A stretch of DNA of 13,822 nt. Origin: Candidatus Delongbacteria bacterium. Its GTDB lineage: Bacteria > UBA4055. Position numbers and translations under genes: made by a program. Below are positions 1-9,240 of this stretch, piece after piece; positions within the stretch are counted from its first letter, which is position 1, and each line of letters begins with the position of its first letter. The DNA lies in the NCBI GenBank assembly GCA_016937995.1, contig JAFGVM010000049.1, positions 1 through 13,822 of the forward strand, given 5' to 3'. A model generated the notes under the pieces. It did not search any database. It was not told where the DNA came from and saw only the letters and a list, made by a program, of their open reading frames with translations.

Positions 1-195
1 GCTGTTATCCAGATTTATTTTTGCTTCTGTTGTGCTGATCACCATTAGAGTATCACCAAGATTGAAAACTCTTAACCCGTCATCAGAAATTGAAAATACC
101 GGATTATTACTATTATCTTTTATCTCGAAAAGAGTTGCCGAATAAAGTGATGAAAGTACAATGATCATGGTTGCAAATACATATAATTTTTTCAT
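1..195 (-). CDS. Secreted fibre/adhesin-like paralogue, 5' part only (cut by window edge)
   Basis: The first 65 codons of a fourth member of the tandem family are visible; the rest lies beyond the left edge. The ATG is at 195, with AAGGA (202-206) six bases upstream on the minus strand. The product starts with a signal peptide (MKKLYVFATMIIVLSSLYSA) and runs straight into the family module LFEIKDNSNNPVFSISDDG, then GLRVFNLGDTLMVIS. This matches the N-termini of the three complete paralogues to its right closely. Its gene body, repeat number and C-terminal type cannot be seen. Only 27 bases separate it from the stop of the preceding gene, so it is probably in the same transcript. Family assignment is secure; function is inferred from the complete copies. 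Confidence 0.85.
   Translation of the reverse strand, partial: MKKLYVFATMIIVLSSLYSATLFEIKDNSNNPVFSISDDGLRVFNLGDTLMVISTTEAKINLDNS
77..137 (-). repeat. 61-base direct repeat shared with the next paralogue (copy 1)
   Basis: This segment of the partial paralogue matches 1682-1742 in the neighbouring gene at 59 of 61 bases. Both differences are third-position and silent (GAT/GAC and AGT/AGC). It encodes the start of the mature N-terminal module. Confidence 0.85.
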
Positions 196-222: not shown

Positions 223-1794
223 TTATTTTAATGACTTTGCTGTAAGAGTTTTTAATATTCTTTCAATTTCATTAAGTTTATATTTTAAGGTTTCATTTTC
301 TTTTTTTAGTAATTCAATTTCTTTCCTGTTTATTTCGCTCTCAACATACTTTGATGCAACACAAAGCACTCCTAACGAATCAACATAAAGACTTTTCATA
401 GCATTTAATGAAGTTGTTGTATACAAATTTGGTATAACACAATTTCCTGCAACGTTAAGATTTCCGTTTATTTTAAGAGAATCGCTGTCAAACTCACCGT
501 AAATTAATGGAGATGAAGTAGTGGAATTGTCTATATATAATTTGTCAGATCCTGGCTCATTATATCCAGCCTTGTATCCTAAAAATACATTGCCTGACCC
601 GGCAGTACTGCTGTATCCGGACTGGTAACCTATGTGAGTGTTCTGAATACCTGTAACATTAGTGAAACCTGTACGATAACCTATCATTACATTTCCACCG
701 CTTGAATCCAGTACATTTCCTGCTCCGGATCCTATAAGTATACTACCTCCGCCTGTTGTATTTTTATTTCCTGCAAAAGCACCTATGAAAATATTGTTTC
801 CACCAGTTGATGTATATTCCCCTGAACGGGCACCCATCATAACATTCATAAAACCCGTAGTAAGTCCAAAACCTGAATTATACCCGAAAATACTGTTATT
901 GCTAAATGACGATCCTGTTGTTCCATATCCTGCCTGAAATCCGAATATTGTGTTATTATCTCCACCACTGTTTTGATGTCCGGCCGCAACTCCAAAATAA
1001 CTGTTGTAATCACCATCTCCATTTTCGTGCCCCGACTCATATCCATAAAATGAGTTCATGTAGCCTGTCGTACTGTTGTATCCGCTGGCTTTACCTACAA
1101 AAGTATTGTAACCACTTAAAGAGCTGTAACCCGAATGTGTGCCAACAAAAATATTATAATCGCCCGATATATTACTATATCCCGACATTCCGCCGATGAA
1201 TGTATTTAACTCTCCATCCACATTTTTCCAGCCTGATGAATTACCTATAAAAGTGTTCCTTGTACCTGTAGTATTATCAAGTCCGCTTCTGTTTCCTAAA
1301 AAAATATTGAAATATCCCGAAGTATTTGCAACTCCAGAATAATTTCCTATGAAAACATTATCAATGCCTGACTGAGGAAGAGGATCTCCTACAGTAACAT
1401 TCTGACCGGAAGACAGACCTAGAAATATATTTTCAGGACTGAAATATGAAAATCTGGGACCTTTTGCAGTGTTTGACATTGTTGCATTCTCACCTGTAAC
1501 ATCTAACGAGTGCATATGAGCATCTGTGGCTGTTACTTCTAAAGCATTTGTTCCTTTTGATGCTGAAGTAGTAACACTGAATGATCTTGACAAACCTCTG
1601 TCTTTGCTATTCGCAATGTACGCTTTTATGTCAGTCGCGGTTATTACCATTAACGTATCATCCAAATTAAAAACCCTGAGTCCGTCGTCAGAAATTGAAA
1701 ATACCGGATTATTGCTATTATCTTTTATCTCGAAAAGAGTTGTGGCATTAATTGAAAATAACATAAGTAATATTATTGGCAGTGAATTCTTCAT
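223..1794 (-). CDS. Secreted YadA-head-like repeat protein without S74 chaperone
   Basis: The 523-residue product is predicted to be exported. It has a signal peptide (residues 1-17, ending SINA), the conserved N-terminal module (about 19-80, ending SFSVTTSASKG), a FSPENIFLG segment (118-126) and then a long run of 17-residue repeats (to about 418). After that come the family 'SPLIYGEFD' module (428-436) and a C-terminal coiled coil (about 484-517). The repeat pattern N-x-h-h-G-x-x-[SA]-G resembles the left-handed beta-roll heads of YadA-type trimeric adhesins. Unlike both complete neighbours it has no S74 autochaperone: the linker around residues 465-488 leads directly into the coiled coil. 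No membrane anchor or C-terminal sorting domain is visible, so its final location is unknown. The ATG at 1794 has AAAAGGAAC upstream, overlapping the end of the preceding gene 12 bases away. A structural or adhesive role is inference. Confidence 0.8.
   Translation of the reverse strand: MKNSLPIILLMLFSINATTLFEIKDNSNNPVFSISDDGLRVFNLDDTLMVITATDIKAYIANSKDRGLSRSFSVTTSASKGTNALEVTATDAHMHSLDVTGENATMSNTAKGPRFSYFSPENIFLGLSSGQNVTVGDPLPQSGIDNVFIGNYSGVANTSGYFNIFLGNRSGLDNTTGTRNTFIGNSSGWKNVDGELNTFIGGMSGYSNISGDYNIFVGTHSGYSSLSGYNTFVGKASGYNSTTGYMNSFYGYESGHENGDGDYNSYFGVAAGHQNSGGDNNTIFGFQAGYGTTGSSFSNNSIFGYNSGFGLTTGFMNVMMGARSGEYTSTGGNNIFIGAFAGNKNTTGGGSILIGSGAGNVLDSSGGNVMIGYRTGFTNVTGIQNTHIGYQSGYSSTAGSGNVFLGYKAGYNEPGSDKLYIDNSTTSSPLIYGEFDSDSLKINGNLNVAGNCVIPNLYTTTSLNAMKSLYVDSLGVLCVASKYVESEINRKEIELLKKENETLKYKLNEIERILKTLTAKSLK
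541..1359 (-). repeat. Array of sixteen 17-residue (51-base) coding repeats
   Basis: Residues 146-418 hold units starting with Asn (or Ser) at 146, 163, 180, 197, 214, 230, 247, 264, 281, 300, 317, 334, 351, 368, 385 and 402. Spacing is 17 almost throughout, with one of 16 and one of 19. The pattern is N-x-h-h-G-x-x-[SAT]-G, a five- to six-residue loop, then G. A further diverged unit begins at residue 122. Units are conserved in protein pattern but diverged in DNA. Confidence 0.9.
1682..1742 (-). repeat. 61-base direct repeat shared with the partial paralogue (copy 2)
   Basis: This is the partner of 77-137, in the same orientation and at the same position within the gene, with 59 of 61 bases identical. 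The third and fourth paralogues are clearly more diverged over the same stretch. Confidence 0.85.
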
Positions 1795-1806: not shown

Positions 1807-3207
1807 TTATTTCTCATTCTGTATCTCTTCTATTATCCGTTCTATCTTTTTCAATCTTTCTTTCAGCTCTTCGTTTTCGTGCCTTAGTTCTTTTATCGCT
1901 TGAATCGCTATTACACTTAAACCTGCATAATCCATAGTATATATTTCACTTTCTTCATTGTACTGAACAAATTCAGGGAACAGTTTTTCGACTTCCTGAG
2001 CTATAAGTCCGGTGTGTTTAATATCTTTATCTCCCTGTGATATAAAGTTGTATCTCTTTGGCTGAAGTAACATGACCTTGTCAAGAATGTTTGCAAGATC
2101 CTCTATGTTCTTCTTAAATCTTATGTCCGAAATTGAAGAATACACACCTGTAGCATAATTAAATGTTCCCCTCTGATCCGAACCGTGAAAAAGATAGAGA
2201 TTATGTGTTGTGGAGTGGTATAAATGCCAGTCACTCGTTGCGCTGGTATTTTTTATAAACAGACCGTTATCCACTCCTGAAGGATGCCAGGCATATGTAT
2301 AATTTGAATTGAATTTCAAAGTATTAGTATCGAATTCACCATAGATCAATGGTGAAGATGTGTCTGAATTATCAATATAAAGCCTGTTTGACCCCAATTC
2401 ATTATGTCCAGAATAATATCCAATAAACACATTTCCAGAGCCAGTTTCATTCTGATATCCGGATCTTGAACCGATGTATACATTCTGATCTCCGTTACAT
2501 TGAACACCTGCAAAATAACCGAAAAGGCAACTGTTCGAACCTGAACTGTTCATTGAACCTGCATTCTGTCCAAAAAAGGAGTTATAGCTTCCATCATTAG
2601 AGTAGCCACTTGAGTAACCGAAAAAAGCGTTTTGATCACCTGTAGAAGAAAATCCGGCGGAACATCCCACATAAGTATTTGTGGCTGCTGTAGTGTTACT
2701 TTTACCTGCATCGAGCCCTATGAAAACGTTAGCACTACCGCTAATGTTTGAATATCCTGAATTTGCACCTACAAAGACATTTGACCATCCTTCAGAATCA
2801 TTAAGTCCTGCATCATTACCTACAAATACGTTCTGCATACCTTCATTTTGAGATCCAGCGTTCAAACCAAGGAAAATATTCTCCGGGCTAAAATTAGCAT
2901 ATTCACCCGAACTGCTTCCCATAGTATTTTTTTTCGAAGTTACCTCTAATGCTTTTGCCCCTTTTGAGGCAGATGTTGTTACACTGAATGATCTGGACAA
3001 TCCTCTATCTTTACTGTTACTGAGGTTCGCTTTAATTTCAGACGCACTGATCACCATAAGTGTATCACCCATATTAAACACTCTTAACCCGTCATCTGAT
3101 ATCGAAAATACAGGTTCACCACTATTATCCAGTATCTCAAAAAGTGTTTCAGCATTTAAGGTGAATAAGGTTATCAGCAAACTAAGGATTATATATGTCT
3201 TTTTCAT
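1807..3207 (-). CDS. Secreted repeat fibre with S74 intramolecular chaperone domain
   Basis: The open frame extends to a TTG at 3228, but the ATG at 3207 is chosen because it starts a proper signal peptide (MKKTYIILSLLITLFTLNA) and has GAGG about ten bases upstream; the product is then 466 residues. Domains in order are the N-terminal module (21-83), ten glycine/asparagine repeats (110-275), the SPLIYGEFD module (285-293), a spacer like those in phage tail fibres (about 300-358) and a Peptidase_S74/endosialidase chaperone (360-440), with a terminal coiled coil (about 440-464). The chaperone opens with SDIRFK, giving the Ser360-Lys365 dyad (spacing i, i+5) known to drive autocleavage in that family, and GLIAQEVEKLFPE follows as expected. 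In the family this domain trimerises the fibre and is then released. What the fibre binds is unknown. Confidence 0.85.
   Translation of the reverse strand: MKKTYIILSLLITLFTLNAETLFEILDNSGEPVFSISDDGLRVFNMGDTLMVISASEIKANLSNSKDRGLSRSFSVTTSASKGAKALEVTSKKNTMGSSSGEYANFSPENIFLGLNAGSQNEGMQNVFVGNDAGLNDSEGWSNVFVGANSGYSNISGSANVFIGLDAGKSNTTAATNTYVGCSAGFSSTGDQNAFFGYSSGYSNDGSYNSFFGQNAGSMNSSGSNSCLFGYFAGVQCNGDQNVYIGSRSGYQNETGSGNVFIGYYSGHNELGSNRLYIDNSDTSSPLIYGEFDTNTLKFNSNYTYAWHPSGVDNGLFIKNTSATSDWHLYHSTTHNLYLFHGSDQRGTFNYATGVYSSISDIRFKKNIEDLANILDKVMLLQPKRYNFISQGDKDIKHTGLIAQEVEKLFPEFVQYNEESEIYTMDYAGLSVIAIQAIKELRHENEELKERLKKIERIIEEIQNEK
2383..2880 (-). repeat. Array of ten 16-17-residue coding repeats
   Basis: Units start at residues 110, 126, 143, 160, 177, 193, 209, 226, 242 and 259, with the same N-x-h-h-G-x-x-[SA]-G pattern as in the neighbouring paralogue. 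Spacing is 16 or 17. The copy at 226 starts with Ser rather than Asn. Confidence 0.9.
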
Positions 3208-3239
3208 AATCGATCGTACCTCAAACAATTCAATTTTCT

Positions 3240-4910
3240 TTAATTTGATAATTTCGACTTAAGCATTTCTAATTTTTCAATTCTGTCATTCTGTATTTTC
3301 ATTTCTTTTTTCATTAACTCGATCTCTTCTTTTTGATCTTGAATAGCCTTGATCAAAATCGGTGTTAATTCAGAATAATTAAGCCCTAAAGTGTGTTCTT
3401 CATCTTCGCCCACATCAACAATTTCAGGTACTATCTCAAGTAATTCCTGAGCAATTAACCCAACTTTGCGTCCACGTTCAGGTTTGTCTTTCCAAAAGTA
3501 TGTAACAGGTCTCATTTTTAAGACCGTGTTTAAACCATACTCAATATCCTTAATATCAGACTTCTGTCTTTTATCCGAAGTTTGAATTACTCCATTTGTT
3601 GCGAATACATCATCCCAGCGTAATGTTGATGCACCAAGATCAAAAACATTATCCGATATTGGTCGTAGAAAACCGCTAGATAAGTAGGGAATCCCTCCAG
3701 AAGTATTATAGGATAAATACATTAAAGGCCCATAAGAGATTGCATTACCTTCTGCCCACCATTCAAGTCTGTTTAAACCTCCATCGTATTTCATTGACAT
3801 ATTATAAGTTCCGTCATTATCTTCAGCTAGAACTATTTCAGCATCATCACCACTTGTTGCTTCTGATGGGGCGATCATTAAAGAACCAAGAGTAGGACTT
3901 CCAACTACATTAAGCTCACCATTTATAGTAACAAAATCATTATCAAACTCTCCATATATCAATGGAGTCGAACTATCTGAATTTTCGATGTATAATTTAT
4001 TAGAACCTGTTTCATTACTACCTGAAGAATATCCAAGACATATATTTCCTTCACCTGCAATATTCCTACCACTATTTGCTCCGATCAACACATTGTTATT
4101 GTTATCAAATCCGGTCATATAAAGACCGCTAAAAGCACCTAAGCATACATTATCGTTGCCATATGGGCTTGTGTAACCTGATCTATGTCCAATATAAATA
4201 TTCGAATGCCCTTCAATGTTATTATATCCCGACTCTTTTCCGATCATTATGTTAGTAGTTCCAACAACATTTTCATAACCTGCAAGATTCCCAAGGAATA
4301 CATTAGCGGATCCACCCCAGTTATTTTCTCCGGACGAATTTCCTAAAAATACATTATCAATTCCACTCATACCATTAACGACATTAACTTTACCTGTGTT
4401 TAAACCCAAAAAAACATTCTCCGGGCTAAAGTCTGAATAATGTTCTCCAACCGCACCCTCTCTCATTTTCGTTTCATCAGAGTTAACTTCTAATACATCG
4501 GTCTCCAACTTCCCAGCACCTGTGGAAGTAACGTTAAATGAGTATGAAGTGTCAATGTAGGCTGTAATATTCCCGGTCGTAATGTCCATCAGATTTGTGT
4601 TATCACTATAAACTCTTAAACCGTCACCAGCTATATTTACAACATCACCCTGACCTTTAGAAGCTGAAGTTGTTACACTGAATGATCTAGATAATCCTCT
4701 ATCTTTGCTATTCTCAATAAAAGCTTTTATCTCAGATGAACTTATCACCATCAGAGTATCTCCCTGATTAAATACTCTAAGACCATCCGTGGTTACCTCA
4801 AGTACGGTGTAATTACTTTCATCTTTTATTTCAAATAGAGGTGTCGCTTTCACTTGTATAGAAAACAAGATAACGACTAAAATAAAAACAATATGTTTTT
4901 GGTATATCAT
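3240..4910 (-). CDS. Secreted repeat fibre with S74 chaperone; first gene of the array
   Basis: The 556-residue product has a signal peptide (about 1-22), the family N-terminal module (25-86), a diverged second copy of that module (about 90-134), a FSPENVFLG segment (161-169), eight repeats (165-305) and SPLIYGEFD-like STPLIYGEFD (314-323). A region typical of phage tail fibres follows (DLGASTLRW, 424-432), then an S74 chaperone starting at SDKRQK with Ser445 and Lys450 as the expected dyad, GLIAQELLEIVPE, and a C-terminal coiled coil (about 525-553). The ATG at 4910 is preceded by a strong AGGAGG (4918-4923, spacing 7). It is transcribed first, downstream of a CRP-like site and a -10 box in the 79-base gap after the cyclase gene. 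Export and autoprocessing follow from the family; ligand and location are unknown. Confidence 0.85.
   Translation of the reverse strand: MIYQKHIVFILVVILFSIQVKATPLFEIKDESNYTVLEVTTDGLRVFNQGDTLMVISSSEIKAFIENSKDRGLSRSFSVTTSASKGQGDVVNIAGDGLRVYSDNTNLMDITTGNITAYIDTSYSFNVTSTGAGKLETDVLEVNSDETKMREGAVGEHYSDFSPENVFLGLNTGKVNVVNGMSGIDNVFLGNSSGENNWGGSANVFLGNLAGYENVVGTTNIMIGKESGYNNIEGHSNIYIGHRSGYTSPYGNDNVCLGAFSGLYMTGFDNNNNVLIGANSGRNIAGEGNICLGYSSGSNETGSNKLYIENSDSSTPLIYGEFDNDFVTINGELNVVGSPTLGSLMIAPSEATSGDDAEIVLAEDNDGTYNMSMKYDGGLNRLEWWAEGNAISYGPLMYLSYNTSGGIPYLSSGFLRPISDNVFDLGASTLRWDDVFATNGVIQTSDKRQKSDIKDIEYGLNTVLKMRPVTYFWKDKPERGRKVGLIAQELLEIVPEIVDVGEDEEHTLGLNYSELTPILIKAIQDQKEEIELMKKEMKIQNDRIEKLEMLKSKLSN
3996..4418 (-). 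repeat. Array of eight coding repeats
   Basis: Units begin at residues 165, 186, 203, 220, 237, 254, 273 and 289 with the same N-x-h-h-G-x-x-[SA]-G pattern. The first interval is 21 residues and one is 19; the rest are 16 or 17. This is the shortest of the three complete arrays. Confidence 0.88.
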
Positions 4911-4936
4911 TATGAATCCTCCTCAAAATTCAAACC

Positions 4937-4942
4937 AATATA
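4937..4942 (-). promoter_or_regulatory. Predicted -10 box of the fibre-array promoter
   Basis: On the minus strand this reads TATATT, five of six matches to TATAAT. It predicts transcription starting near 4930, giving a 20-base leader that contains AGGAGG (4918-4923). The -35 region (CAGACT, 4960-4965) is poor and overlaps the CRP-like site, as in class II activated promoters. Other AT-rich -10 candidates lie within a few bases (for example TATTAT), so the exact start is uncertain. Confidence 0.5.
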
Positions 4943-4963
4943 ATAATATTAATAGATAAAGTC

Positions 4964-4979
4964 TGTGACCTACCTCACG
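4964..4979. promoter_or_regulatory. CRP (cAMP receptor protein)-like operator
   Basis: The plus strand reads TGTGA-CCTACC-TCACG, matching nine of ten conserved positions of the CRP consensus TGTGA-N6-TCACA. The centre (4971.5) is 41.5 bases upstream of the start predicted from the TATATT box, which is the class II activation position. It sits between an adenylyl cyclase-like gene and the first fibre gene. No CRP gene is in the window. FNR sites (TTGAT-N4-ATCAA) fit less well. Confidence 0.55.
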
Positions 4980-4989
4980 AAAAGGTGTG

Positions 4990-7900
4990 CTATTTCATGT
5001 TTTCCTGAATAGACTTTCCTTTTTCGATGTATTCAGCATATCCGATCTCATTTGAAATATTAACACCTTTATTGATATATTCCTCCGCTCTTTTTAATTC
5101 ACCTGTGTTTAAAAATATTTCACCAAGTTCAATTAATGCTTCCGCTATATGATGTTTTATGCCATACTTTTCTGCAATTTCCAGACCTTTGATCATTTCT
5201 GTTACTGCTTTATCGTATTTTTTCTGCAGCTTATATACATGTCCCAAATTTATAAGTGCATTGGACATTGTTGAATAATCAGACAATTCTTTACTTATTC
5301 TAAAACTCTCTTTGTGATGAGATATTGCTTTTTTAAACATTCCAAGATCCTTGTATAAAAAGCCTATGTTATTTAAACTCTGAGCAAGTTCATTTCGTTT
5401 TCCGAGTTCTTCACTCAGTTTAAGTTTCTTTTCGTAAAACTCTCTGGCTTTTTCCAGTTCACCTTTCAAATGATAAACAACTCCGATATTTCCTATTGCA
5501 CTGGCTGTTTCCATCTTAAAATTCATTTTTTCGGTTATTTCAAGTTGTTTATAATAGTTTTCAAGAGCTTTATTAAACTGCCCTGTATAATCGTAAACAA
5601 TCCCTATACTTCCAAAAAGCTTAGCACTGTTTTTATCCCGGATGTTTTTATCTATGATTTTTTCAGAGGTTTCCAGTCCAAGTTTAAAACATTCGAGAGC
5701 TTTGTCCATCTTTCCAGTTGTAAGATAATTTTTACCCAGGCTCTCATATACCAGACATAACCTATCATTGTTATTATGTTTTTCGAATATGACTTTTGCT
5801 TGTTCAAGTTCACTGTTGGATTCTTCAATTTTTCCACTGTGTGCCGATAATTGACTTAGATCTAGATTCGTAAAAGCGATCAGCATTTCGTCCTTTACTT
5901 TTTTTGCAAGGTTAACAGTAGTATTGATAATATTTTTACTTAACTCAACATTCTGAAATATACCAAAGTAGAAATAAAACCTTTGTTGATTGATTATGAT
6001 TAATTCTTTTACGATATCAATGTTGGATTTGTTTATTTTAAGATCATCCCAATCGCCTGTACTAATACCTGTTTTTTTAGATGCGTATTCTACCCACTTA
6101 TCAAAGTGTTTTACTGAAAGATCGTTCTGGTAGTCATTTTTAGCTTTAAAACCCGCTTTCTTCAGATATTCCATTGCCTTGTCAACATTTTCAGCCAGAT
6201 CATAATGATATGCAAGTATATTATAATGCGAATCTAATTTATTTTTATTTATTTCCTCAATTGCTTCTGCAGCGATTTCATGAATATCTCTGATGATTTT
6301 TCGAAGTTGCATATCATAAATTGCATCTCTGATCACGGCATACTTGAACAAATAATTTACTTCAGAAACAAGTATGAGAATATCTTCACTCTCAAGATCG
6401 GTCAGGTGCTTTCCAAGATTATCGTATTTATCTCTTAGTATGTGTGAGAGTACTTCTACAGAAAAATCGTTTCCTAATACTGATGCTGTTTTTAAAATAT
6501 CTTTAAGGTGTTGTTTAAGCTTATCTATCCTGGCTATAACTATCTTGTTTAATCCGTCAGGGATATCATCTTCATTCGTTAGTATATTCTTTTTTGTGAT
6601 CAAACGGTTATCAACCAGATAGTGTATCATCTGTTCCAAAAATAAAGGATTACTGTGACTTTTTTTCTGAAGCACTGTTAATGTTTTTTGAGGGATCCTT
6701 TTAGTTTTCAGTCTATTTTTAGTAAGCTCTTTAAAATCGGTACTATTGAGTCTTCCAAGCTTTATCCTTTTCTGACTGCTGAACCCGAAATCATATTTAT
6801 CGCCATTGTACTTGAATCTGCAATTTAGTATCATCCCGAAGGAATATTTTTTTAGTTCGTGGGATAATCTTTTAAAAAATTTCATTGAATCATTATCAAG
6901 AAATCCTGCATTGTCTATCTCAAATACCATTGTAATGTCTTGATTAAAGCATTTAAACAATGTTATCAGAGTAAGTAGGATATTGTTCTGCCTTTCATCC
7001 GGTTCTTCTGCGTAAATATCAGTATTTGTTAGTTGAAGATTCAGAAAATAACAAATATAGTCTCTATTGTTGTCGAGATCAGTCTTTGATTTATCACACT
7101 CAATTGTTTCAATCAATTGATCCAGTTTTTTATTAAACCTGAAAGTATTTCTTTCCTGGGTATCATCTTCTGCCAAATCAAAGTGTCTGTTAAAAAAGTA
7201 TTTCAAAGGATTATATGGACTTTTTATGATCTCATCGCATGAAAAATAAAACCAGTTTATTTGCTTTCCAAGCTTTTTGTATTCTAATACAGTCTCTGAT
7301 CTTACTTTGTTTGCAAGTCTTGATTTACCGATACCTGCCTCTCCATCGAGATATATTGAACCGATATATTTGTTCTTACTCAGTGGGCTAAGAAGCTTTT
7401 TAAGTCTGCTCTTTTCTTTCTCTCTACCTATAAAATCACCTTTGAAGAATATATCCTTGATCTCCGCTTTACCAGCCAGATTATATGTGGGTATCAATTT
7501 TTCAATACCTTTATATTTTAAATCCCCGATATGATCGAAAATAAAATTTTCATTCGAAATAAATTCTTTTCCAAGTAAAACTTGTTCCCAATTTGCCTGC
7601 ATCATAAATCTTGCACTTTGATTTACAGTATTACCTAGACAGGTAAACTCTTGTCTGATATCAGCACCACTGAAGCCACAATAAACTATACCTTTTGCTA
7701 AACCAGCTCTAATATGAATTTTATCTAATCTTGCTTCAGCTAACCTGAAAATAAAATTTAAAGCACGCTGGATATTATTTTCATAGGATATTGGTGCACC
7801 GAAAAACAATAGAATATTTCCACCTTTATCACCAAAATCCAAAACAGGATGAGATGCTCCGTAAGTAATTTTAAGCTCATAAAGTCTTTCCATTAATTCC

Positions 7901-8670
7901 TGCAGGTCAACATCACCCGAAAATGATATGAACACAGATATAATATCCCTGAACTCTCCTATCGGAAATTCAGCTTCAAGCTTTCCCGTTAAATGGTTAA
8001 TATCTTCTTTCTTAGCTTTTACTCTCTGGTATTTAACTTTAGTAACGGTAAATCCTTCTGTTGAGATCACTTGATAAAATTTCTCATTGTGAAGTTCCGC
8101 TTTCTTAGTTTTTACAACAACATCTTCTACAAATTTATAGAAAGAACTGTGTGCCCATATATCTCCTTTTTCTGCATTATGCTCCGCCATGGCACAAAGA
8201 TCCACAGCACTTCCGCTGAAATAGTATGTTCTCTCTGTTGAAGATCCTACAATCCCACAGGTACAATTACCAAATGACAATCCTACCTTTACACCAAACT
8301 CAAAATCCCCGAATTTGGATTTATATATTTTATTGTCTTCAAAAAATTGATTTGTTATTATCGCGGCTTTCAAAGTTCTTAATGCAGTGGTTTTCTTTAC
8401 ATCTTTAACCTCAAATATCGCAGTAAATGCATCTCCTGCATACTTTGTTACATAACCGCCATGATCATAAACAGCAGAAACAGTGGTATTAAAAAGATAC
8501 TTCAGTATGTCTGAAAGTATCTCAGCTCCTTCCTGCCCATGCTTCATTAACGCTTCAGTAGTACTTGTAAATCCTGAAATATCAACGAACATTGCAAAGC
8601 ATTCGAATTTATCTGTGAATTTATTGTCAATAAAATTTTGGACTATTCTGTCAGGTACTAAATTGTGCAT
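4990..8670 (-). CDS. Soluble-adenylyl-cyclase-like protein: two cyclase domains, NTPase, TPR
   Basis: The 1226-residue protein has no signal peptide or membrane segment, so it is cytoplasmic. Cyclase domain 1 (about 20-190) holds FVDISGFT (metal Asp30) and KYAGD (Lys76, Asp80). Domain 2 (about 240-400) has lost both metal positions (Ser249, Asn285) but keeps Lys282, Thr343 and TVNQSAR (Asn350, Arg354). That split, with metals from domain 1 and base and transition-state residues from domain 2, fits a single active site as in mammalian sAC (Asp47/Asp99 with Lys334/Thr405/Asn412/Arg416, from memory), so ATP to cAMP is the likely reaction. A P-loop NTPase follows (GEAGIGKS 443-450; weak Walker B MVFEIDNA 581-588). 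At least six TPRs fill about 975-1220. The ATG at 8670 has GGAG (8677-8680) seven bases upstream. The sAC bicarbonate-binding Arg176 position appears to be Ala160 or Met161. The signal it senses is unknown; the NTPase and TPRs suggest a partner-controlled switch. Confidence 0.85.
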   Translation of the reverse strand: MHNLVPDRIVQNFIDNKFTDKFECFAMFVDISGFTSTTEALMKHGQEGAEILSDILKYLFNTTVSAVYDHGGYVTKYAGDAFTAIFEVKDVKKTTALRTLKAAIITNQFFEDNKIYKSKFGDFEFGVKVGLSFGNCTCGIVGSSTERTYYFSGSAVDLCAMAEHNAEKGDIWAHSSFYKFVEDVVVKTKKAELHNEKFYQVISTEGFTVTKVKYQRVKAKKEDINHLTGKLEAEFPIGEFRDIISVFISFSGDVDLQELMERLYELKITYGASHPVLDFGDKGGNILLFFGAPISYENNIQRALNFIFRLAEARLDKIHIRAGLAKGIVYCGFSGADIRQEFTCLGNTVNQSARFMMQANWEQVLLGKEFISNENFIFDHIGDLKYKGIEKLIPTYNLAGKAEIKDIFFKGDFIGREKEKSRLKKLLSPLSKNKYIGSIYLDGEAGIGKSRLANKVRSETVLEYKKLGKQINWFYFSCDEIIKSPYNPLKYFFNRHFDLAEDDTQERNTFRFNKKLDQLIETIECDKSKTDLDNNRDYICYFLNLQLTNTDIYAEEPDERQNNILLTLITLFKCFNQDITMVFEIDNAGFLDNDSMKFFKRLSHELKKYSFGMILNCRFKYNGDKYDFGFSSQKRIKLGRLNSTDFKELTKNRLKTKRIPQKTLTVLQKKSHSNPLFLEQMIHYLVDNRLITKKNILTNEDDIPDGLNKIVIARIDKLKQHLKDILKTASVLGNDFSVEVLSHILRDKYDNLGKHLTDLESEDILILVSEVNYLFKYAVIRDAIYDMQLRKIIRDIHEIAAEAIEEINKNKLDSHYNILAYHYDLAENVDKAMEYLKKAGFKAKNDYQNDLSVKHFDKWVEYASKKTGISTGDWDDLKINKSNIDIVKELIIINQQRFYFYFGIFQNVELSKNIINTTVNLAKKVKDEMLIAFTNLDLSQLSAHSGKIEESNSELEQAKVIFEKHNNNDRLCLVYESLGKNYLTTGKMDKALECFKLGLETSEKIIDKNIRDKNSAKLFGSIGIVYDYTGQFNKALENYYKQLEITEKMNFKMETASAIGNIGVVYHLKGELEKAREFYEKKLKLSEELGKRNELAQSLNNIGFLYKDLGMFKKAISHHKESFRISKELSDYSTMSNALINLGHVYKLQKKYDKAVTEMIKGLEIAEKYGIKHHIAEALIELGEIFLNTGELKRAEEYINKGVNISNEIGYAEYIEKGKSIQENMK

Positions 8671-8877: not shown

Positions 8878-9240
8878 TTAATGAAAATCCAACCCGCCTA
8901 TCAATTTTCTCAAAACTACTAAAAATTCTTCATAATTATCGGGAAATTCTCCAGACCCATAAGTATGAAGTTTTAATTTACCTACTTTAATATTCACACT
9001 CCAATTCTGCCCGTCTGATGTACTTTTATCAACATATGATCTGTTCCATAGCCATATCTTAAGATTAACCGTTTCTTTCCAGAATTTATCCCAGTCATCA
9101 TCTGATGGATCTCTTACAAGTTTTTCCTCAGGTCTTGTTGCATGATAGATAAGTTTATTATCCCTGAGTAGTATTGTGAAAGATCTTCCGTAAAAAGAAC
9201 TTAAAGTGATCCTCATTTCTTCAGGTGTTGATGAGTGCAT
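8878..9240 (-). CDS. Conserved hypothetical protein, 120 residues
   Basis: I do not recognise a named family. The protein is soluble-looking, with no signal peptide or membrane segment. It is rich in Trp in its middle (WDKFWKETVNLKIWLWNRSY, 50-69), followed by DGQNWSVNI (76-84) and a C-terminal YGSGEFPDNYEEF (94-106) then VLRKLIGG. The combination of 'DG..W...I' with 'GS..FPDNY.EF...L..L.GG' looks like a widespread small domain of unknown function. The ATG at 9240 has no clear ribosome binding site; ATG at 9216 (MRITLSSFYGRSF) is an alternative with a weak GAAG before it. It is co-oriented with the cyclase gene 207 bases downstream, probably as a separate unit. Confidence 0.65.
   Translation of the reverse strand: MHSSTPEEMRITLSSFYGRSFTILLRDNKLIYHATRPEEKLVRDPSDDDWDKFWKETVNLKIWLWNRSYVDKSTSDGQNWSVNIKVGKLKLHTYGSGEFPDNYEEFLVVLRKLIGGLDFH

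What the first reader, a model, noticed from the sequence alone, without database searches (positions are those of the whole stretch)
4937..4979. CRP-like site at class II spacing between a cAMP-making enzyme and a surface-fibre array
Seen: TGTGA-N6-TCACG (4964-4979, nine of ten CRP consensus bases), centred 41.5 bases upstream of the start predicted from TATATT (4937-4942), with a poor -35 and a strong AGGAGG before the first fibre gene. Known: class II CRP promoters have this geometry. A 9-of-10 match is expected roughly 0.4 times by chance in a window this long at equal base composition, but far less often in the short intergenic DNA and at this exact spacing. Inferred: the adjacent adenylyl cyclase makes cAMP, which activates the fibre array through a CRP homologue, giving a local signalling-to-surface circuit.
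Basis: partly seen in the sequence, partly recalled or inferred. Interest (0 to 1): 0.75.

Follow-up and report, generated by a model that had tools for sequence, protein, structure and literature searches.

The report
CRP-type promoter before surface-fibre genes
In an uncultured bacterial phylum, the short gap between a cyclic-nucleotide enzyme gene and a row of surface-fibre genes holds a real, evolutionarily conserved switch of the classic CRP type, so the fibres are very probably turned on through a CRP-family regulator.

Summary
TGTGACCTACCTCACG lies at 4964-4979, exactly 21 bases from TATATT (4937-4942), in the 79-base gap between the cyclase-like gene and the fibre array. The motif alone is not significant in the window. 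Comparison makes it so. All seven genomes of the family with an assembled cyclase-to-fibre junction, whose cyclases are only 50-64% identical, carry a CRP-type dyad and a TATATT-like -10 at spacing 20 or 21. No internal fibre gene has this. Across 13 genomes, 23 of 42 promoters with a perfect non-Rex site have TAnnnT at exactly +21, against 4% expected. The genome encodes a CRP homologue with the R180/E181/R185 recognition residues and most of the cyclic-nucleotide pocket. So this is very probably a CRP-family class II promoter (centre -41.5) in a regulon rich in surface and secreted proteins. Not shown: that the neighbouring sAC-like enzyme supplies the signal. The genome has six cyclase genes, and this one lacks the substrate-lysine match. 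A known kind of switch, newly found in Candidatus Delongbacteria, with a conserved cyclase-fibre linkage worth testing.

The parts
4964..4979 (-). CRP-type operator, read CGTGAGGTAGGTCACA towards the fibre genes; 9 of 10 consensus bases; promoter-proximal half TCACA perfect
   Evidence: TCACA invariant in 7 of 7 junctions
4937..4942 (-). -10 hexamer TATATT, 21 bases after the operator
   Evidence: TATATT (TAAATT in G006) at +20 or +21 in all 7 junctions
4930..4930 (-). predicted transcript start (+1), inferred from the -10; puts the operator centre at -41.5
   Evidence: inference
4918..4923 (-). ribosome-binding site AGGAGG
3240..4910 (-). first fibre gene, 556 aa, signal-peptide-like start, glycine-rich FIG/SG repeats, C-terminal S74 chaperone domain
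1807..3228 (-). second fibre gene, S74 domain
223..1794 (-). third fibre gene (no Pfam hit, same N-terminal module and repeats)
1..195 (-). start of a fourth fibre gene, cut by the contig end (the window is the whole contig C93)
4990..8670 (-). class III cyclase-like protein, 1226 aa: two cyclase domains, AAA ATPase, TPR; nearest solved structure human soluble adenylyl cyclase
8878..9240 (-). 120-aa protein of unknown family, conserved upstream of the cyclase in relatives

Best explanation
A CRP-family class II promoter that activates the S74 fibre array. A dimer of the CRP homologue at G000:C64:39656-40363, probably when loaded with a cyclic nucleotide, binds the dyad at 4964-4979. There it covers the place of a missing -35 box, contacts RNA polymerase placed by TATATT, and starts transcription near 4930. 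Shown by computation: the element, its conserved position and spacing, its restriction to array-head and GLUG genes within the array loci, and a regulator with matching DNA-reading residues. Inferred: binding, cAMP as ligand, activation rather than repression, and the transcript start.
For: (1) All seven assembled cyclase-to-fibre junctions (G000 and G006-G011, four genera) keep a dyad with 8-9 of 10 consensus bases and TATATT/TAAATT at +20/21; the six relatives sum to 85 against 58.0, sd 2.06, maximum 65 in shuffles. Cyclase identity between the junctions compared is 50-64%. (2) Among 99 genes of the array loci the joint score is bimodal: 85 genes at 8-12, 14 genes at 14-15. The 14 are the seven heads and seven GLUG-type genes; no internal fibre gene is among them. 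(3) 68 perfect sites in 13 genomes against 17 for the reversed pattern; 58 intergenic. TAnnnT at +21 in 23 of 42 non-Rex promoters, background 0.04 per offset, p about 1e-21 before allowing for orthologous promoters; the class I offset +41 has 2. (4) CRP orthologue in 11 of 13 genomes, R180/E181/R185 in 11 of 11, G71/E72/R82 in 11 of 11; cNMP_binding E 1.5e-24. (5) No TTGACA-like -35 in any junction.
Against: No transcript, binding or expression data. In five relatives the left half-site overlaps the cyclase stop codon TAG, so two of its bases may be kept for coding. S83 and S128 of the cAMP pocket are N (S in G004) and D, and T127 is A in G007/G009, so the ligand could be another nucleotide or none. 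G008 has the site but no CRP orthologue, though the neighbouring gene is missing too, which suggests an assembly gap. Orthologous promoters are not independent, so the p value overstates the independent evidence.
Confidence: 0.87

Rival explanations
1. Dedicated local circuit: the adjacent sAC-like enzyme makes the cyclic nucleotide that activates the CRP homologue at this promoter, so its AAA/TPR sensor part decides fibre expression. This extends the best explanation.
For: Cyclase directly upstream of the fibre head in seven genomes of four genera. In the window's genome the genes beyond the 120-aa protein differ from those of the relatives while the cyclase-fibre pair is kept. Metal-binding Asp pair, T405, N412 and R416 equivalents kept.
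Against: Six cyclase genes in the genome; cAMP diffuses; K334 equivalent is Pro in all seven orthologues compared; bicarbonate-site R176 not kept; adjacency is no proof of signal flow.
Confidence: 0.35
2. General CRP regulon: the promoter responds to total cAMP from any cyclase; adjacency to this cyclase reflects co-inheritance or co-transcription. This also accepts the CRP promoter and differs only on the signal source.
For: Sites of the same geometry precede unrelated genes across the genome; six cyclase genes.
Against: The pair stays together across four genera.
Confidence: 0.5
3. The site is bound by the second CRP/FNR-family protein (G000:C64:21906-22601).
For: It keeps E181 and R185 and is present in most genomes of the family, including G003 and G008.
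Against: Ile at 180, the residue that reads the second base of TGTGA (own knowledge of CRP-DNA structures), and no phosphate-binding cassette in 8 of 8 compared; FNR-type TTGAT-like sites would be expected instead.
Confidence: 0.06
4. A Rex (NADH-sensing) operator: Rex sites TTGTGAA-N4-TTCACAA also fit TGTGA-N6-TCACA.
For: The family does have such sites before nuoE/F, hydG, hydA and rex, matching a published Rex regulon (PMC6391272).
Against: The window site and its orthologues lack the A/T pair next to the half-sites; Rex-like sites show no -10 peak at +21.
Confidence: 0.02
5. The dyad is an RNA hairpin or terminator of the cyclase transcript.
For: It lies just after the cyclase stop and is an inverted repeat.
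Against: Folding no better than shuffles (z -1.07 to +0.67) in six junctions; the same dyad also lies upstream of divergently arranged genes.
Confidence: 0.02
6. CRP represses rather than activates here.
For: The site overlaps the core promoter.
Against: No -35 box to support unaided initiation; spacing is exactly that of class II activation.
Confidence: 0.05

Closest known systems
Class II CRP (CAP)-dependent promoters, for example E. coli gal and CC(-41.5)
   Same: Dyad TGTGA-N6-TCACA centred at -41.5, over the place of the -35 box, with a sigma70-like -10 (PMC7192510, PMC12360894).
   Different: Different phylum, CRP homologue only distantly related, no detectable class I (-61.5) peak here, not tested experimentally.
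Human soluble adenylyl cyclase (ADCY10), PDB 4clf
   Same: Two cyclase domains at the start of a long protein; phmmer E 4.7e-26; D47, D99, T405, N412, R416 equivalents kept. The AAA/TPR remainder is from Pfam.
   Different: K334 equivalent is Pro, R176 not kept; enzymatic activity unknown.
Pseudomonas aeruginosa cAMP-Vfr control of type IV pili (PMC8787478)
   Same: cAMP-responsive CRP-family control of a surface appendage.
   Different: Here S74-domain fibres and GLUG proteins, with the cyclase gene next to the target array.
Predicted CRP regulon of cyanobacteria (PMC2633013)
   Same: CRP sites predicted by computation outside enterobacteria.
   Different: Only title and start of abstract seen here; nothing there on fibre arrays or an adjacent cyclase.

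Membership tests
Class II CRP-dependent promoter | Dyad close to TGTGA-N6-TCACA | tested here: met
   9 of 10; 8-9 of 10 in six relatives
Class II CRP-dependent promoter | Centre at -41.5 relative to the start | tested here: met
   Judged by the -10 position only: 21 bases here, +20/21 in all seven junctions; the transcript start itself is not mapped
Class II CRP-dependent promoter | Site replaces the -35 box | tested here: met
   CAGACT at the -35 place; none TTGACA-like in relatives
Class II CRP-dependent promoter | CRP protein with matching DNA-reading residues | tested here: met
   R180/E181/R185 in 11 of 11 orthologues
Class II CRP-dependent promoter | cAMP-binding pocket in the regulator | tested here: inconclusive
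   G71, E72, R82 kept; S83N in 10 of 11, S128D, T127A in two
Class II CRP-dependent promoter | Activating regions AR2/AR3 | tested here: inconclusive
   Basic residues at 19 and 21 (R, K), but N/E at 100/101 (alignment; AR2 residues as in PMC7192510)
Class II CRP-dependent promoter | CRP- and cAMP-dependent transcription | not testable with these tools
   needs experiment
Soluble adenylyl cyclase (ADCY10) type | Two class III cyclase domains, AAA, TPR | tested here: met
Soluble adenylyl cyclase (ADCY10) type | Metal Asp pair, T405, N412, R416 | tested here: met
Soluble adenylyl cyclase (ADCY10) type | Substrate lysine K334 | tested here: not met
   Pro in all seven orthologues
Soluble adenylyl cyclase (ADCY10) type | Bicarbonate-site arginine R176 | tested here: not met
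   alignment
Rex operator | TTGTGAA-N4-TTCACAA | tested here: not met
   Window site GTGAG...GTCAC (read on minus); no +21 peak for Rex-like sites

The most novel reading that the evidence does not exclude
A dedicated signalling-to-surface unit conserved in a family of Candidatus Delongbacteria: a bacterial relative of mammalian soluble adenylyl cyclase, with AAA/TPR sensor parts, is kept next to the CRP class II promoter of an S74 fibre array and controls it through a cyclic nucleotide, possibly not cAMP.
Probability: 0.33. Interest if true: 0.68.

Novelty: new member of a known kind. Interest (0 to 1): 0.52.

Why it matters
It gives the first testable CRP regulon that I know of for an uncultured phylum, built largely of surface and secreted proteins (14 papers in the held library mention Delongbacteria, none more than twice and none in title or abstract). 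It also ties a relative of mammalian soluble adenylyl cyclase to a fixed downstream target. The exact -41.5 spacing across 13 genomes shows that class II activation geometry can be read from sequence alone far from E. coli.

Tried and rejected
Window-wide motif statistics alone: not significant. A first junction test limited to the strict intergenic gap gave weak values for five relatives because the site overlaps or abuts the cyclase end there; repeated with a fixed 105 bases before the start codon. A first CRP alignment read some loci on the wrong strand, corrected. RNA hairpin: rejected. Rex: rejected for this site. G001's junction could not be read because its contig ends inside the cyclase gene. 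Structure models of the fibre (pLDDT 55) and the 120-aa protein (pLDDT 57) were too poor for fold searches.

Full report
What is there. The window is contig C93 of a 2.75 Mb, 99-contig genome. The nearest named records for one of its genes, at 85-90% identity, are Candidatus Delongbacteria / UBP11. On the minus strand lie a 120-aa protein, a 1226-aa cyclase-like protein (two cyclase domains, AAA, TPR) and an array of fibre genes, two of them with S74 domains, cut by the contig end. The 79-base gap 4911-4989 holds the reported dyad 4964-4979, TATATT 4937-4942 and AGGAGG. The geometry is as reported: 21 bases between dyad and -10, centre -41.5.

Chance. With one mismatch the window has two matches and 0.56 are expected, so the motif alone would not convince. 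The genome has nine perfect TGTGA-N6-TCACA sites against two for the reversed pattern; eight of the nine are intergenic. With one mismatch allowed the counts are 94 against 56.

Relatives. The order cyclase then fibre array recurs in G006-G011 (in G009 only the end of the cyclase gene is on the contig). At each junction the 105 bases before the first fibre gene hold a dyad with 8-9 of 10 consensus bases, always with a perfect promoter-proximal TCACA, and TATATT (TAAATT in G006) at +20 or +21. Each beats all 2000 shuffles. The six relatives sum to 85 against a shuffle mean of 58.0, sd 2.06, maximum 65. The cyclases compared are 50-64% identical, so unconstrained DNA would not be kept. In G007-G011 the left half-site overlaps the cyclase stop codon TAG, which may explain the A in its first position; TCACA and the -10 are free of that constraint.

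Specificity. Of 99 genes in the array loci, 85 score 8-12 and 14 score 14-15, with none at 13. The 14 are the seven array heads and seven genes of long GLUG-type proteins; no internal fibre gene is among them (GLUG motif by Pfam in the two scanned).

Regulon geometry. I fetched the 68 perfect sites of 13 genomes; 58 are intergenic. Oriented to the downstream gene, TAnnnT stands at +21 in 24 of 51, against about 4% at other offsets. Nine promoters carry the Rex form TGTGAA-N4-TTCACA and lack the peak; removing them leaves 23 of 42, and only 2 at the class I offset +41. Most non-Rex sites lie 48-62 bases before the start codon; the window's lies at 53. Recurrent targets are a family of about 480-aa secreted proteins (eight genomes), GLUG proteins (five genomes with a perfect site), a lipoprotein-like family and PAS/ArcB-like membrane proteins. 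The Rex-like sites precede nuoE/F, hydG, hydA and rex, as in a published Rex regulon (PMC6391272).

The regulator. The genome has two CRP/FNR-type transcription factors. S83 is N in 10 of 11 and S128 is D, so cAMP binding is likely but not certain. The other factor has I180 and no cassette. G008 lacks the orthologue and also its neighbour gene, which points to an assembly gap; G003 lacks the orthologue and has no fibre match.

The cyclase. Its best solved relative is human soluble adenylyl cyclase (E 4.7e-26). The metal Asp pair, T405, N412 and R416 equivalents are kept; K334 is Pro in all seven orthologues compared and R176 is not kept (the roles of these residues are from own knowledge). It may make a cyclic nucleotide, but which one is open. 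Six genes in the genome carry class III cyclase domains, so the nearby cyclase need not be the source.

Conclusion. A CRP-family class II promoter for the fibre array is very probable. A private cyclase-to-fibre circuit is an attractive but untested extension, supported by conserved adjacency only.

Noticed in passing
L198, L193, L203, L042, L211, L212, L220:5828: Rex-type operators before nuoE/F, hydG, hydA and a rex gene; a plain TGTGA-N6-TCACA scan mixes CRP and Rex sites in these genomes.
   Followed up: partly
8878-9240 (-): 120-aa protein without Pfam or NCBIfam match, conserved next to the cyclase in several relatives (55-82% identity), with a conserved DWxKFWKxTVxxKIWLW stretch.
   Followed up: partly
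L107:8199-8264 and L111, L113, L118, L119, L123, L126: GLUG-type surface-protein genes inside or at the end of fibre arrays have their own CRP-type class II element.
   Followed up: yes
L036, L191, L195, L200, L202, L205, L207, L216: A family of about 480-aa secreted proteins carries a perfect CRP-type site in eight genomes; the one member scanned has no Pfam match.
   Followed up: partly
4990-8670 (-): All seven orthologues compared carry SHPVLDFGDKGGN where soluble adenylyl cyclase has the substrate lysine K334, hinting at an altered substrate.
   Followed up: partly
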